From Methanotorris igneus Kol 5 (GTDB lineage: Archaea; AGJL01; Methanococci; Methanococcales; Methanococcaceae), in assembly GCF_000214415.1 (NCBI RefSeq), contig NC_015562.1, forward strand, positions 1,589,130-1,653,129: a DNA stretch of 64,000 nucleotides, read 5' to 3'. The translations under genes and the position numbers were made by a program. Under the pieces are notes generated by a model, which worked only from the letters and a program-made list of their open reading frames with translations, made no database searches and had not been told where the DNA came from. Below are positions 7,678 through 50,137 of the stretch, in pieces; position 1 is the stretch's first letter, and every line of letters begins with the position of its first letter.

Positions 7678-8031
7678 TGCCGTTTGAAACTGTTTAATTT
7701 TTCATTGACGAATGTGGACATTAATGTATTTTCGTTTTCGAAATTTTTATATATGCGTTTATATACATGTAAATATAAGGATGATGCCTCTGATGAAGGT
7801 GGATACTGGAGACCTAAGGAGGCGGACTTTACTGAGTGTTAAACCTTATGGGCGGAGTCGGGGTTCTCCCGGAGCGAAGCGACGGGAACTTAAAAACCGT
7901 TAGGTTTTTATGTCCGTGACAGGGATGGAGACCGATGATATGTTCCCGATGAACCCAGAGGGAACTGAGGCCGATGACATCCAAGTCCAACGTGGGCATT
8001 TGTCTATGATTGTTCACGTTGGACAGACCCC
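7678..8031 (+). mobile_element. tnpB-less IS605/IS607-type element with orphan omega-RNA region (copy A)
   Basis: The left end GCCGTTTGAAACTGTTT matches the left end of the solo tnpB element at 48577. The right part matches the last ~200 bases of the IS607 element at 14-16 kb, including the tnpB-tail/RNA segment, the stem-GATGAACCCAGAG-stem motif and a terminal hairpin (GTCCAACGTG..CACGTTGGAC) ending ACAGACCCC. No tnpA and no TnpB catalytic region remain. A near-identical inverted copy lies at 38380-38727. A small open frame in it is only the decayed tnpB tail. It probably encodes a structured RNA. Confidence 0.75.
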
Positions 8032-14121: not shown

Positions 14122-14176
14122 GCCTTCCGAAACTGTTATATATTGGATGAGTGTTAGTTATTATTGGTGAGTAAGT

Positions 14177-14806
14177 ATGAGTTTAGAAAGACTATATACG
14201 ATGAAGGAAGCTTGTGAATTGTTAGGAGTTCATATAAAAACACTGCAAAGATGGGATAGAGAGGGAAAGATAAAGTGTGTTAGAACTGTGGGGGGAAAGA
14301 GGAGGGTTCCAGAGAGTGAAATAAAACGAATATTAGGAATTAAAGATAAAGAACAAAGAAAAATTATCGGCTATGCAAGGGTTTCATCTAACACACAAAA
14401 AGACGATTTAGAAAGGCAAATAGACGCGATAAAATCATACGCAAAAGATAGGGACTGGAATATAGAGATATTAAAAGATGTTGGTAGTGGATTAAGCGAA
14501 AAAAGAAAAAACTACAGAAAACTTTTAAAAATGGTTATAAACCGGGAGGTTGAGAAAGTAATAATTGCCTATCCAGATAGATTGACAAGATTTGGCTTTG
14601 AAACATTAAAAGAATTCTTTAAATCTTACGGAACGGAGGTAATCGTTATTAATAAGAAATGTAAGGCTCCACAAGAAGAGTTAGTAGAAGATTTAATAAC
14701 CATTATCTCCTATTTCGCAAGAAAATTATACGGAATGCGTTCCCACAAATATAAAAAACTTATAAAGACAGTTAAAGAAATTGTGGGCGAGAATAATGCA
14801 AAATAA
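14177..14806 (+). CDS. tnpA: IS607-family serine recombinase (TnpA)
   Basis: A 209-residue transposase. Residues 1-55 form a MerR-like helix-turn-helix ([27 protein letters not shown]). A resolvase-type catalytic domain follows, with the nucleophilic serine in IIGYARVSS, then LERQ and the [17 protein letters not shown] arginine region. It ends with the coiled C-terminus typical of IS607 rather than a long resolvase HTH. GGTGAGTA precedes the start. It overlaps tnpB by about 11 bases. Confidence 0.92.
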
Positions 14807-16076
14807 AAACAAACTTCCATCCGAAATCGTATTAACTTACAAGATTAAACATAATTACGATTTAAAAAACTTGTTAGATGGATTTATGAGTACCTCTCAG
14901 AAAGCAGTTGATATTATCTGGGAAAATATCAACTGGAAAGAAAAACAAGTTAAACATCGATTTAAATCTAAAAATAAATACAAATACTACACAACCACCC
15001 GATTAATCCCAGAAATTCCAAAAGATAAGGATTTCAAAAGAGAACTAAGAAATTATTTACTAAATGGATGGAATTTTGCTTCTCATTATGTTGATGGAGC
15101 TATTAAAGTGGCTTATTCAACAATAGAGAGTTGGAAATCGAATTATTTAGATGGTAAAAGAAAAAGAAATAAACCGACATTTAAAAGACCTTTTGTTAGA
15201 GTTAAAAATACCCTAATAAAATACGATAAAGAAAATGGAACGATAAGGATAACGATAAAAGCGAGGAGAGAGTATTTAATCTTAGATATTAAAAATGAAT
15301 GGTTTTTCGAAAAAATTAAAGGTTTTGACATTGGAGAGATAATATTAAAAGACAGTGAAGCATTAATAACCTTTAAAAAACCTTTAAATATATTTGATAA
15401 AAAAGTCGTTATCGGTGTAGATAGCAATCTAAAATCCTTAGATTTATTCCATCCAGAAGAAGGGTGGATTAGAATTGATTTATCTGAACTGCGTAGAATA
15501 AAGAATGTTTATGATGTTATTATCGATAAGTTAAAGTCGATTTATAAAAAAGCCCCAAAAAGAATCAGTATCTTGCTAAAAAAGTATTATAATAGGAGAA
15601 AAAATCGAGTTGAAGATTTTATTAACAAATTAACCTCCCAATTGTCAAAGCTTTTCCCAGATGCAATTTTTATCTTTGAGGATTTGGATAAGCCCAATAT
15701 GTATAAAAATTCGAACTTTAACAGAGATTTAGATAGAACGAGTTGGAGAGAGATAGCGAAAAAGTTAGAGTATAAGAGTATTGTTTTTTACGTTAATCCT
15801 CACTATACTTCAAAAACCTGTCCTATATGCGGGAGTAAAATGGAGTCCCAAGAGGGACAGGTTGTAAAATGTGAAAAATGTGGAGTTTTCAATAGGCAGT
15901 TCGTCGGCTCTTTTAATATCTTTAAAAGAGGAGTTAAATTAGTTAAAAAACTCTTAGGCGGAGTTGGGGTTCTCCCGGAGCGAAGCGACGGGAACTTAAA
16001 AACCGTTAGGTTTTTATGTCCGTGGCTGGGGTGGAGGTCGATGATTTACTCTCCAATGAACCCAGAGGAGAGTTGA
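14796..16076 (+). CDS. tnpB: TnpB, RNA-guided nuclease homologue (non-canonical RuvC-III)
   Basis: A 426-residue TnpB from the ATG at 14796 (an earlier TTG at 14781 lies inside tnpA). RuvC-I Asp is in [12 protein letters not shown], RuvC-II Glu in [10 protein letters not shown], and the zinc ribbon is [15 protein letters not shown]. The segment that normally reads DRDxNAAxNI is [11 protein letters not shown] here, so the usual third catalytic Asp is missing. The last ~28 residues come from a frame shifted by a 47-base palindromic insertion (15971-16017), so this tail is not native. Family TnpBs cut DNA guided by an RNA from the element's 3' end; whether this copy cuts is doubtful. Confidence 0.85.
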
Positions 16077-16169
16077 GACCGATGTCACCCAAGTTCATCG
16101 TGAGGGTTAATTTAAGCGGAAGCACTTTTATTCACATTTACTCCTAAATCCTCACGATGGACAGACCCC
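15955..16169 (+). ncRNA. putative omega/reRNA of the IS607 element
   Basis: The 3' part of tnpB and its downstream sequence are GC-rich and strongly self-complementary: CCCG..CGGG, AAAAACC..GGTTTTT, CTCTCC-AATGAACCCAGA-GGAGAG, and a long terminal stem. The same structure without tnpB is kept at 7.7 and 38.4 kb. In the family such transcripts run to the element's right end and take their guide from the flanking DNA. RNA boundaries are inferred. Confidence 0.6.
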
Positions 16170-16261
16170 GCATATCTGGTTAGTGTAGAGATTGTAGAAT
16201 AATTATATATTTATAATAGTTTGAAATTGTAATAATAAATATCATATATGTGGGTGAAGTT

Positions 16262-31194: not shown

Positions 31195-32218
31195 AGAGGT
31201 TGTCGAAAAATACGAATACTATAAATAATAGTAATAATAATTATGAGCGGCAGAAAAACCAAAAGAAAAGGATACTGGAAAGCCTACGATAAGAGGTTTA
31301 AGATATTCAATATTAAGTACACTTATGATTTTGTTTCATTTATTATAAATATTTTACTTCCATATAAAGAAAAACGCAAAGTAGGAAGGCCTTTAGCTAT
31401 AAGTTACAATGAATATATAGCTACTCTAATAATAAAACACATTTTTAGAATTAGTTTAAGAGATTTAGAAACTCTTTCCGATTATTTACATAAAAAGCAT
31501 ATAGATAGCTCCACATACGGAAAAGCTTTTCAGAGGATTAAAATAAGCGATTTAACTAAAATAATCGTTGGATTACACTTAATTATTGCTAATTCGTTAA
31601 AATCATCGGTTATAATTTACATAGCTGATTCCACTGGAGTCCATTTATTAAGAGTGTATTGTGAAAGAATCAGAGTTGTGAATAATGAAATAAAAAAGGT
31701 AAAGTATCGGGTTTTTGACAAAATGCACGTATTAGCTTGCTATTATAAAGATTATGGATTAATTTCGATTGTTATGGTAAAATGGGATAATGGATATAGT
31801 TCAGACAGTAAAAACTTACTAAAAATGATAAAATCTTTAGATTTTGTGAAAGGTGCGATAATATTGTTGGATGGTGGTTACGATGATGAAGATTTACTTA
31901 GAGAGTTGTTATCCATAGACCTCATTCCAATAGTTAAAACAAAAGAGTTTAAATGGGATTACGGTATTTCTAAAATCAGAAAGAAAGTTAAAAAATTGTT
32001 TGATAAGAAACTGTATAAAATTAGAGGGGTAATAGAAGCGATATTTGGAGGGCTAAAAACTAAATTTAGATTAACTCTAAATGAAAAACTACCTGAAAGT
32101 AGATGTAGAGCTACTTTAGCAGTAGCAATCGTTCATAATATTTTAACACTAATGAGAGTTATTAGTATTAGAGAGTAATATTTAAATTCATTGATGAAAT
32201 AATTTTTCGACAACCTCT
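31195..32218 (+). mobile_element. IS5-superfamily insertion sequence
   Basis: Perfect terminal inverted repeats AGAGGTTGTCGAAAAAT (31195-31211) and its complement (about 32202-32218) enclose one transposase gene; total about 1.02 kb. It has inserted into a MITE-like repeat. No obvious target duplication is visible at the borders I chose. Confidence 0.85.
31243..32178 (+). CDS. IS5-like DDE transposase
   Basis: A 311-residue transposase with a basic N-terminus and the DDE_Tnp_1 fold. The first Asp is in VIIYIADSTGVH (about residue 124), the second in IILLDGGYDDE (about 206), and the Glu in the Y(2)R(3)E(6)K signature YKIRGVIEAIFGGLK (about 265-280). It appears intact. The start is ATG at 31243, only 48 bases inside the left repeat. 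Confidence 0.88.
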   Translation: MSGRKTKRKGYWKAYDKRFKIFNIKYTYDFVSFIINILLPYKEKRKVGRPLAISYNEYIATLIIKHIFRISLRDLETLSDYLHKKHIDSSTYGKAFQRIKISDLTKIIVGLHLIIANSLKSSVIIYIADSTGVHLLRVYCERIRVVNNEIKKVKYRVFDKMHVLACYYKDYGLISIVMVKWDNGYSSDSKNLLKMIKSLDFVKGAIILLDGGYDDEDLLRELLSIDLIPIVKTKEFKWDYGISKIRKKVKKLFDKKLYKIRGVIEAIFGGLKTKFRLTLNEKLPESRCRATLAVAIVHNILTLMRVISIRE

Positions 32219-32470: not shown

Positions 32471-33508
32471 ATGCCGCTAAGTGAGATTTTAGAAATAAAC
32501 TTGGTAATTTTTGATAAAATGGGTAAAATGTTATTTAGGACAGAAGCATCTGGAAAATTATATGCCATTAAGGAAAAATTTGAATGCTTAATAGAAAAAT
32601 CTGAAGAAATTAACAAGACAATATTTTTTGAAGATGAGGTTCTGTTTGTAATTCCACTTCATGGGGTCTGTCCATCGTGAGGATTTAGGAGTAAATGTGA
32701 ATAAAAGTGCTTCCGCTTAAATTAACCCTCACGATGGACTTGGGTGACATTGGCCTCAACTCTCCTCTGGGTTCATTGGAGAGTAAATCATCGACCTCCA
32801 CCCCAGTCACGGGTACCCCGATTCCGCCTAAGAGTTTTTTAACTAATTTAACTCCTCTTTTAAAGATATTAAAAGAGCCGACAAACTGCCTATTGAAAAC
32901 TCCACATTTTTCGCATGTTACAACCTGTCCCTCTTGGGACTCCATTTTACTCCCGCATACGGGACAGGTTTTTGAAGTATAGTGAGGATTAACGTAAAAA
33001 ACAATACTCTTATATTTTAGCCTTTTTGCAATCTCTCTCCAACTCGTTCTATCCAAATCTTTGTTAAAGTTTGAATTTTTATACATATTGAGCTTATCCA
33101 AATCCTCAAAGATAAAAACTGCATTTGGAAAGAGTTTAGATAGCTGGGAAGTTAATTTATTAATAAAATCTTCAACTCGATTTTTTCTTCTATTATAATA
33201 CTTTTTTAGCAAGATACCAATTCTTTTTGGGGCTTTTTTATAAATCGACTTTAACTTATCGATAATAACATCATAAACCTTCTTTATTCTATGCAGTTCA
33301 GATAAGTCAACTCTAATCTACCCTTCCTCTGGATGGAATAAATCTAAGGATTTTAGATTGCTATCTACACCGATAACGACTTTTTTATCAAATATATTTA
33401 AAGGTTTTTTAAAGGTTATTAATGCTTCACTGTCTTTTAACGAATCACTTATATATGCTTATGAAGATGTCAAAAAATTTATAAACTCTGTTTATAAATA
33501 TAATTAAT
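32471..33508 (+). pseudogene. small gene interrupted by a tnpB remnant
   Basis: The 5' part (32471-32662) encodes MPLSEILEINLVIFDKMG.. and ends ..FFEDEVLFVIPLHG exactly at the transposon edge. Past the remnant, 33441-33508 reads ESLIYAYEDVKKFINSVYKYN and a stop. The alternating beta-strand and final amphipathic helix resemble roadblock/longin-type small proteins that accompany GTPases; this is an inference. The insertion plus deletion makes it non-functional unless rejoined. Confidence 0.5.
32663..33440 (-). pseudogene. truncated tnpB with intact right end and RNA region
   Basis: Closely matches the 3' two-thirds of the IS607-element tnpB (from its residue ~185 on), in inverse orientation. 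The N-terminal part, tnpA and the left end are missing; the junction is at 33440/33441. A Trp codon is mutated to TAG at 33318-33320 (the CTA on the plus strand). It keeps the RuvC-II Glu, the zinc Cys and the [11 protein letters not shown] variant. Unlike the 14.8-kb copy it lacks the 47-base palindrome and so shows the native tail [19 protein letters not shown]. The right-end hairpin (32663-32735) is intact. Confidence 0.85.
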
Positions 33509-38239: not shown

Positions 38240-38379
38240 ATCTTAATCTCTACATATAACATATAATCTAATAGACCGTGTAATATAGAGTGTATATTAG
38301 ATTTGTTAATCAATATTTTTAAATTAGTGAGTGGTATTTTTCACCACTCACACTTCTTAAAAGTATATAAGAAGAAATA

Positions 38380-38727
38380 GGATCTGTCCAACGTGAACAA
38401 TCATAGACAAATGTCCACGTTGGACTTGGATGTCATCAGCCTCAGTTCCCTCTGGGTTCATCGGGAACATATCATCGGTCTCCATCCCTGTCACGGACAT
38501 AAAAACCTAACGGTTTTTAAGTTCCCGTCGCTTCGCTCCGGGAGAACCCCAACTCCACCCATAGGTTTAACACTCAGTAAAGTCCGCCTCCTTAGGTCTC
38601 CAGTATCCACCTTCATCAGAGGCATCATCCTTATAGTTATATATATAAACTCATATATAAAAATTTTGAAAACGAAAATACATTAATGTCCACATTCGTC
38701 AATGAAAAATTAAACAGTTTCAAACGG
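38380..38727 (-). mobile_element. tnpB-less IS605/IS607-type element with orphan omega-RNA region (copy B)
   Basis: Inverse-oriented, near-identical copy of 7678-8031. It keeps the left end GCCGTTTGAAAC (38716-38727), the 47-base palindromic module (38499-38545), the GATGAACCCAGAG stem motif and the terminal hairpin GTCCAACGTG..CACGTTGGAC (from about 38385). It has inserted next to a GGCAAAATCC hairpin that belongs to a MITE-like right end (ACATGACTATA at 38761). No protein is encoded. The spacer 38240-38379 shows nothing else. Confidence 0.75.
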
Positions 38728-48696: not shown

Positions 48697-49935
48697 ATGC
48701 CCAATAAGACAAAATCAAAAGGGACTCAGGAATTATCCTATCAAGTCGTTCTATCTTACAAAGTTAGTCACAACTATCCACTTAAAACGTTCTTAATCGA
48801 ATGCAAAGATAAGTTAAACGAATGCATAGACATGATTTGGAATAACATAGAATACACTAAAAAAGATAAACCAAAATTGCCAAAATCAAACGAATTCAAA
48901 AGAAATCTAAGAAACAAACTCTTAGAAAATTGGAGTTATGCCTCTCACTACATCGATGGGATTATAAAAACCTCCTATTCCATCCTACAAAGTTGGGCTT
49001 CGAACTACAAAAGAGGTTATAGAACTAAAACAAAACCAGTAGTAGAGAGGTTATTCGTTAGAGTTAAAACAACCCTAATAAAATACGACAAAGAAAGAGC
49101 GGAGATAAGAATAACGATAAAACCAAGAAAAGAGTATTTAACCTTAAACATCAAAAATGAATGGTTCTTCGATAAGGTTAAGGACTTAACAATTGGAGAA
49201 ATTATTTTAAAGGAAAATGAAGCGTTTTTAACCTTCAAAGATAATCTAAACTATTCAGACAAAGATATAATCGTTGGAGTAGATAGCAATCTAAAATCCC
49301 TCGACTTATTCCATCCGATAGAGGGTTGGATAAGGATAGATTTAACCGAATTACACCGACTTAAAGAAGTTTATGATAAAAAGATTGATGGGCTTAAAAA
49401 ACTGCTTAAAAAATGTCCTTTAAGAGTTTTGAGAAAGATAAATAGGTTATTCGAAAGAAGGAGAAATAGGGTTAAGGACTTTTTACACAAACTTACAACA
49501 CAATTATCTCGACTATTTCCGGATGCAATTTTTGTCTTCGAGGATTTGAATAAGAGAAGGATGTATAAAAATAAACACTTCAATAGAAGAATAGATAGAG
49601 CGAATTGGAATGGAATAATCGAAAAAATAAGTTATAAGGCGGTTGTTATCTTAGTTAATCCTGCCTACACTTCAACGACCTGTCCTATATGCGGGAGTAG
49701 AATGGAGTCCCAAGAAGGGCAGGTTGTTTGCTATAATTGTTCAAACTCTTTTAATCGCCAAGTAGTTGGCTGTTTTAATATTTTTAAACGAGGTTTGGGT
49801 GCAATCAAAAGATTTATGGGTGGCTCTGGGGTTACCACGACAGGGGCAGAGGTCTCTGCTAAGGGACTGATGACGCCCAATCCCAACGTAGTTTATTATG
49901 TGGATTTAAATGGCAAATATCTTAAATGTATATAA
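48697..49935 (+). CDS. tnpB: TnpB of the solo element (non-canonical RuvC-III)
   Basis: A 412-residue TnpB. RuvC-I Asp is in [13 protein letters not shown], RuvC-II Glu in FVFEDLNKRRM, and the zinc ribbon is CPICGSRM..VVCYNCSN. The third catalytic position is again altered: FNRQVVGCFNIFKRG in place of DRDxNAAxNI. The tail GVTTTGAEVSAKGLMTPNPNVVYYVDLNG is encoded by the right-end structure and resembles the native tail of the 32.7-kb pseudogene. The frame is intact. Activity as a nuclease is uncertain; RNA-guided binding remains possible. Confidence 0.85.
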   Translation: MPNKTKSKGTQELSYQVVLSYKVSHNYPLKTFLIECKDKLNECIDMIWNNIEYTKKDKPKLPKSNEFKRNLRNKLLENWSYASHYIDGIIKTSYSILQSWASNYKRGYRTKTKPVVERLFVRVKTTLIKYDKERAEIRITIKPRKEYLTLNIKNEWFFDKVKDLTIGEIILKENEAFLTFKDNLNYSDKDIIVGVDSNLKSLDLFHPIEGWIRIDLTELHRLKEVYDKKIDGLKKLLKKCPLRVLRKINRLFERRRNRVKDFLHKLTTQLSRLFPDAIFVFEDLNKRRMYKNKHFNRRIDRANWNGIIEKISYKAVVILVNPAYTSTTCPICGSRMESQEGQVVCYNCSNSFNRQVVGCFNIFKRGLGAIKRFMGGSGVTTTGAEVSAKGLMTPNPNVVYYVDLNGKYLKCI

Positions 49936-49967: not shown

Positions 49968-50137
49968 ACAAACTATTTATGGGTAATCTTGAATTAACAT
50001 GAGCGAATTTTAATTATTGTGATTAGTGCTGTAATTCGTAGAACGATATAATAATGTAATACATAATCGATATATCCAAATTTAGCATAAATGGCAAAAC
50101 CGAAGGTTTTTACCACATATTTTTTAAAGGTGAGACA

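What the first reader, a model, noticed from the sequence alone, without database searches (positions are those of the whole stretch)
14796..16076. TnpB family lacking the canonical third RuvC aspartate
All three TnpB sequences (14.8, 32.7 and 48.7 kb) read FNRQ(F/V)VG(S/C)FNI where active TnpBs have DRDxNAAxNI; RuvC-I Asp, RuvC-II Glu and the zinc ribbon are kept. Known: some TnpB clades have relocated catalytic residues, and nuclease-dead TnpB-like proteins act as RNA-guided repressors. Either explanation makes this family worth testing, especially with orphan RNA loci nearby.
Basis: partly seen in the sequence, partly recalled or inferred. Interest (0 to 1): 0.75.

Follow-up and report, generated by a model that had tools for sequence, protein, structure and literature searches.

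The report
TnpB nucleases with a relocated aspartate
[quoted passage not shown] rearranged sites of this class were already known in the literature.

Summary
The FNRQ motif is real: all three window copies and all eight further family copies in this 1.85-Mb archaeal genome carry it. The catalytic RuvC-III Asp is the second D of DRD (ISDra2 D361), so the change that matters is D to Q (Q368). The N (N366) is a freely varying position; close relatives read FDRQ.

Among 132 archaeal TnpBs the lost Asp and an Asp seven residues after the RuvC-I Asp (D216) exclude each other: RuvC-III Asp only 58, +7 Asp only 64, both 0, neither 10. A further phylum agrees in every readable pair. Correlated evolution is supported (p=1.3e-5; control with the N position p=0.27). 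A blind column scan ranks this column first, and three of the exceptions carry a Glu two residues away.

Best reading: an active IS607 TnpB whose third carboxylate moved from RuvC-III to RuvC-I strand 2. The genes are mobile and under purifying selection, and 24 stand-alone guide-RNA elements accompany them. Not shown: geometry and cleavage. RuvC-III-rearranged TnpBs (clade RIII-r4) are already named in the literature.

The parts
14122..16169 (+). IS607 element, subfamily A: left end GCC-TTCCGAAACTG, right end GACAGACCCC; likely guide starts at 16170
   Evidence: Right end shared with L002, L005, L006 and solo elements; the left end is degenerate against the solo consensus, so inferred
14177..14806 (+). 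tnpA, IS607-type serine recombinase (MerR-like HTH + Resolvase)
   Evidence: Pfam PF00239 4e-26, HTH_17 and MerR; overlaps tnpB start
14796..16076 (+). tnpB subfamily A, 426 aa: D209 (RuvC-I), D216 (+7, proposed relocated ligand), E295 (RuvC-II), C342/C345/C359/C362, N366-R367-Q368
   Evidence: PF07282 1.1e-11, PF01385 3.2e-7; alignment A4; AlphaFold2 model and Foldseek
15414..15443 (+). RuvC-I codons [10 protein letters not shown]: catalytic D209 and the new D216
   Evidence: Sequence; column scan
15888..15899 (+). FNRQ codons; the RuvC-III catalytic slot is Q368, not N366
   Evidence: Alignment to ISDra2 D361 and literature
15930..16169 (+). Guide-RNA (omegaRNA) scaffold overlapping the tnpB 3' end, double hairpin from about 15974
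   Evidence: 26-copy alignment A5 and consensus fold, 11 pairs with compensatory change
32663..33440 (-). 5'-truncated subfamily-A tnpB fragment with right end (pseudogene)
   Evidence: In-frame stop; PF07282 hit L008
48578..49967 (+). Element, subfamily B, without tnpA; likely guide starts at 49968
   Evidence: Left end GCCGTTTGAAACTG, right-end hairpin ending GAGAACCCC
48697..49935 (+). tnpB subfamily B, 412 aa, same RuvC pattern ([10 protein letters not shown] / FEDL / FNRQ)
   Evidence: PF07282 9.7e-11, PF01385 1.3e-9
7680..8031 (+). Solo guide-RNA element (MITE-like, type A), no protein gene
   Evidence: Left end, hairpin, length and right end (L020)
38379..38727 (-). Solo guide-RNA element (MITE-like, type A), no protein gene
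   Evidence: Hairpin, left end, length (L021)

Best explanation
The FNRQ TnpBs are most likely working RNA-guided DNA nucleases of archaeal IS607 transposons with a rebuilt RuvC site. The carboxylate normally supplied by RuvC-III (second Asp of DRD) is lost to Gln and replaced by an Asp on RuvC-I strand 2, seven residues after the RuvC-I catalytic Asp (D209, D216, E295). Guided by RNA made from the element's right end (scaffold ending GACCCC, then flanking sequence as guide), the enzyme would cut the empty site (GCC + guide) left after excision and so favour retention of the element. The 24 stand-alone scaffold elements would load the same enzymes in trans. Shown here: the motif, the mutual exclusion, correlated evolution, purifying selection, conserved RNA structure, element ends and one empty site. 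Inferred: metal binding by D216, cleavage, the TAM, trans use.
For: Mutual exclusion of +7 Asp and RuvC-III Asp in 132 proteins: 58 / 64 / both 0 / neither 10; a further phylum agrees in all readable pairs. Pagel test p=1.3e-5, control p=0.27. The pairing occurs in about five separate places of the tree. Blind column scan: D216 is the acid most gained (0.86 vs 0.00) while Q368 goes from 1.00 to 0.00 acid; three of four Q rows without +7 Asp have Glu at +5 (L090, L099, L136), seen in none of the 64 others; RuvC-I and RuvC-II acids kept in 99% of Q/H rows. dN/dS 0.07-0.23. IS607 tnpA upstream in many loci. Model: D209 on strand 204-210, D216 on the adjoining strand 214-219, Cas12f/TnpB fold. Guide RNA with 11 compensatory pairs.
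Against: No coordinates were returned, so distances between D209, D216 and E295 were not measured; with a simple three-residue turn (211-213) D216 would face V208 rather than D209, so the register needs checking. Ten rows lack both acids: three have +5 Glu, four belong to a DRH clade (L058 and kin), L118 also lost the RuvC-II Glu, and L100 and L242 are unexplained. Tree support is uneven and the strict independent-pairs test is underpowered. I found no cleavage assay of this family; one study reports an active RuvC-II-rearranged TnpB but its text states none for RIII-r4.
Confidence: 0.77

Rival explanations
1. Nuclease-dead TnpB used as an RNA-guided DNA-binding repressor (TldR-like) or as a regulator of transposition.
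For: The canonical RuvC-III Asp is absent from every copy; protein and guide RNA are conserved, as a binder would also need.
Against: The Asp gained at +7 exactly where the RuvC-III Asp is lost has no reason in a dead enzyme; the other acids and the zinc ribbon stay under constraint; multicopy mobile elements with tnpA rather than one host-linked gene.
Confidence: 0.12
2. Asp and Glu alone suffice, with Gln or His at RuvC-III as a neutral ligand, and the +7 Asp serves another purpose (RNA processing, folding).
For: A canonical-looking clade (L058, L214, L229, L237) has DRH without +7 Asp; L100 and L242 lack both.
Against: 64 of 74 Q/H rows have the +7 Asp and three more a +5 Glu; Gln is a poor metal ligand (general chemistry).
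Confidence: 0.08
3. Decay of inactive transposon copies.
For: One window copy is truncated; L065 and L073 have RuvC-I Asp to Tyr.
Against: Intact copies share the motif across subfamilies and phyla, with dN/dS 0.07-0.23.
Confidence: 0.03

Closest known systems
TnpB clade with RuvC-III rearrangement (RIII-r4), named in PMC10278001 after Altae-Tran et al. 2023 (PNAS, not held)
   Same: TnpB whose RuvC-III motif departs from DRDxN; those authors say compensation is possible
   Different: I could not check whether these archaeal IS607 TnpBs are that clade, nor whether the RuvC-I +7 Asp was proposed there
Bacterial IS607 TnpB ISFba1 (PMC11061315)
   Same: IS607 context, guide RNA associated with the element, GG-containing TAM
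   Different: Canonical D194-E290-D371, all needed; RAGATH-18 RNA, not found here
ISDra2 TnpB (PMC10097598)
   Same: Fold, zinc ribbon, RuvC-I Asp and RuvC-II Glu
   Different: Keeps D361 in DRD; IS200/IS605 element
Fanzor and pro-Fanzor TnpBs with relocated RuvC-II Glu (PMC10711439)
   Same: Precedent for a relocated RuvC carboxylate
   Different: There the RuvC-II Glu moved to near the zinc finger; here the RuvC-III Asp to RuvC-I strand 2
Ghost Spu-1 elements of Fanzor (PMC10432273)
   Same: Element copies with ends but no nuclease gene
   Different: The archaeal copies keep a conserved guide-RNA scaffold

Membership tests
TnpB | RuvC domain with inserted zinc ribbon and WED/REC part | tested here: met
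   PF07282 and PF01385 above cut-off; model matches Cas12f and TnpB structures
TnpB | D-E-D site with RuvC-III Asp (DRDxN) | tested here: not met
   Q368 stands in the slot of D361
IS607 transposon | Serine-recombinase tnpA next to tnpB; junction dinucleotide, no target duplication | tested here: met
   tnpA, relatives; one empty site GAT-GCC-GCA inferred against the intact gene in L288
RIII-r4 clade of TnpB | Placement in the published tree | not testable with these tools
   Original paper not held
TldR (nuclease-dead TnpB-like repressor) | RuvC acids lost without replacement; non-mobile, host-linked gene | tested here: not met
   D and E kept, +7 Asp gained, multicopy with tnpA and MITEs; definition from memory
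omegaRNA | Conserved structured RNA at the element's right end followed by a variable guide | tested here: met
   Conserved up to GACCCC, then variable; 11 compensatory pairs
omegaRNA | Transcribed and bound by TnpB | not testable with these tools
   No transcript or binding data

The most novel reading that the evidence does not exclude
An archaeal IS607 TnpB lineage has an active RuvC site whose third carboxylate moved to RuvC-I strand 2 (with a second solution, Glu at +5), a change that arose several times; and in this genome about ten such enzymes are shared by some 24 stand-alone guide-RNA elements, a multi-guide system that acts on every insertion site in trans.
Probability: 0.4. Interest if true: 0.65.

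Novelty: new variant of a known kind. Interest (0 to 1): 0.48.

Why it matters
It indicates that the RuvC site of TnpB and Cas12 relatives can be rewired at RuvC-III as well as at RuvC-II, names a testable residue (D216) and a control (N366), and warns against calling a TnpB dead because one motif is missing. It also gives thermophilic archaeal candidates whose scaffold, guide and likely TAM can be read from the genome.

Tried and rejected
Rejected: N for D as the key change (18 changes on the tree; no correlation with +7 Asp). Other gained acids (columns of E181 and K158) precede the RuvC domain and are weaker. The active SisTnpB1 of S. islandicus (D187, E271, D335; PMC10640517) could not be assigned to this family: its spacing fits neither TnpB group in the Sulfolobaceae-like genome G255. 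A viral-contig scan found no relative. The one genome-contig scan used a single protein and found two close relatives only. Rfam has no match above its thresholds. Independent-pairs tests were underpowered. The structure tool gives no coordinates, so no distance was measured.

Full report
WHAT IS THERE. The window lies in a single-contig archaeal genome of 1.85 Mb; the closest named relatives by protein are Methanocaldococcus and other Methanococci metagenome genomes. It holds three copies of one TnpB family: subfamily A with its IS607 tnpA (14177-16076), a truncated A fragment on the other strand (33.4-32.7 kb, in-frame stop), and subfamily B without tnpA (48697-49935). The genome has 11 such tnpBs (seven A including the fragment, four B, all FNRQ) and one canonical TnpB (IDRDLNAAINL, L001). 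A and B are 56-60% identical and share [18 protein letters not shown] and FNRQxVGxFNIFKRG.

WHICH RESIDUE MATTERS. In the alignment to ISDra2 TnpB the DRD motif is residues 359-361, and the published catalytic centre is D191, E278, D361 (PMC10097598). FNRQ therefore has Q368 in the catalytic slot and N366 in the slot of D359. Close relatives read FDRQ (L041, L043, L044, L049), so N is a side variation; Q is shared by all members of the family.

SEARCH FOR COMPENSATION. I collected homologues across archaeal phyla. In 132 non-redundant proteins: RuvC-III Asp with no Asp at RuvC-I +7, 58; RuvC-III Gln with +7 Asp, 53; His with +7 Asp, 11; both Asp, none; neither, 10. A further phylum, not used to find the pattern, agrees in all readable pairs: SLD with DRQ, SID or SVD with DRH, NVT or NIT with DRD. 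A scan of all columns, blind to position, ranks D216 first among acids gained in Q/H proteins (0.86 against 0.00), mirrored by Q368 (0.00 against 1.00). Three Q proteins lacking +7 Asp (L090, L099, L136) carry Glu at +5, two residues earlier on the same predicted strand, seen in none of the 64 proteins with +7 Asp. On a tree built without these columns, a dependent model of the two traits beats an independent one (lnL -39.5 against -53.4, p=1.3e-5); the first residue of DRD, as control, gives p=0.27. The pairing occurs in about five separate places of the tree, though support is uneven and the strict pairs test has too few pairs to decide.

STRUCTURE. The AlphaFold2 model (pLDDT 87.7, pTM 0.76) has strand 204-210 with D209, strand 214-219 with D216, strand 290-295 ending at E295, and a helix from 367 with Q368 at its start. 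Foldseek finds Cas12f and TnpB structures. Coordinates are not returned, so contact was not measured. With a simple three-residue turn D216 would face V208, so the true register must be inspected; this is the main gap.

ACTIVITY IS EXPECTED. dN/dS between copies and relatives is 0.07-0.23. The clade has IS607-type tnpA upstream in many loci, in other archaeal phyla too. This fits a working transposon nuclease better than decay or a fixed host repressor.

GUIDE RNA AND SOLO ELEMENTS. A double hairpin, CCGGAGCGAAGCGACGGGA (A) or TCGGAGCGAAGCGACGAGA (B), occurs 30 times in the genome: six times in tnpB 3' ends and 24 times in elements with no tnpB gene, two of them in the window (7680-8031 +, 38379-38727 -). 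They share ends GCCGTT(C/T)(A/G)AAAC and, mostly, GACAGACCCC. The aligned scaffold folds with 41 pairs, 11 with compensatory change, and pairs GGGGU with the terminal ACCCC just before the variable flank. No Rfam family matches. One solo element interrupts a CBS-domain gene; the intact gene in a same-genus genome implies the empty site GAT-GCC-GCA, so CC is the likely shared IS607 dinucleotide and G belongs to the target. G precedes CC in 23 of 24 solo elements, hence a likely TAM of GCC. Use of TnpB in trans by the solo RNAs is inference.

WHAT IS KNOWN. TnpB clades with RuvC-II or RuvC-III rearrangement (RII-r3, RII-r5, RIII-r4) are named, one RII-r5 member was shown active, and the authors say that compensation is possible (PMC10278001). 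Their source paper (PNAS 2023) is not held, so I cannot say whether this family is RIII-r4 or whether the RuvC-I Asp was noted. A relocated RuvC-II Glu in Fanzor is published (PMC10711439). Bacterial IS607 TnpB ISFba1 has the canonical triad (PMC11061315).

VERDICT. The family is best seen as IS607 TnpB with a relocated carboxylate, a variant of a known kind, with a sharp test: D216A against N366 mutants.

Noticed in passing
L028, L030, L032 (solo elements): Three solo guide-RNA elements carry a nested insertion (ends actatagttgtgtgcg...cgcacacaactata) inside the scaffold between the two hairpins, probably another small mobile element.
   Followed up: no
window 15974-16020 and tnpB 3' ends of L002-L012: About 46 bp with the double hairpin is present at the same place of some tnpB copies of both subfamilies and absent from others (L003, L007, L008, L009, L012), changing the C-terminus ([16 protein letters not shown]); the same form is in the same-genus genome (L062).
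   Followed up: partly
L018 (G000:C1:801842-802660): A solo element interrupts a CBS-domain gene that is intact in the same-genus genome (L288).
   Followed up: yes
window 31243-32178: DDE transposase (PF01609) next to the truncated tnpB fragment at 32.7 kb.
   Followed up: no
L058, L214, L229, L237: A canonical-looking TnpB clade with DRH in RuvC-III and no +7 Asp: histidine alone may replace the Asp there.
   Followed up: partly
L118, L100, L242: TnpBs lacking both acids (L118 also lacks the RuvC-II Glu): candidates for truly dead TnpB.
   Followed up: no
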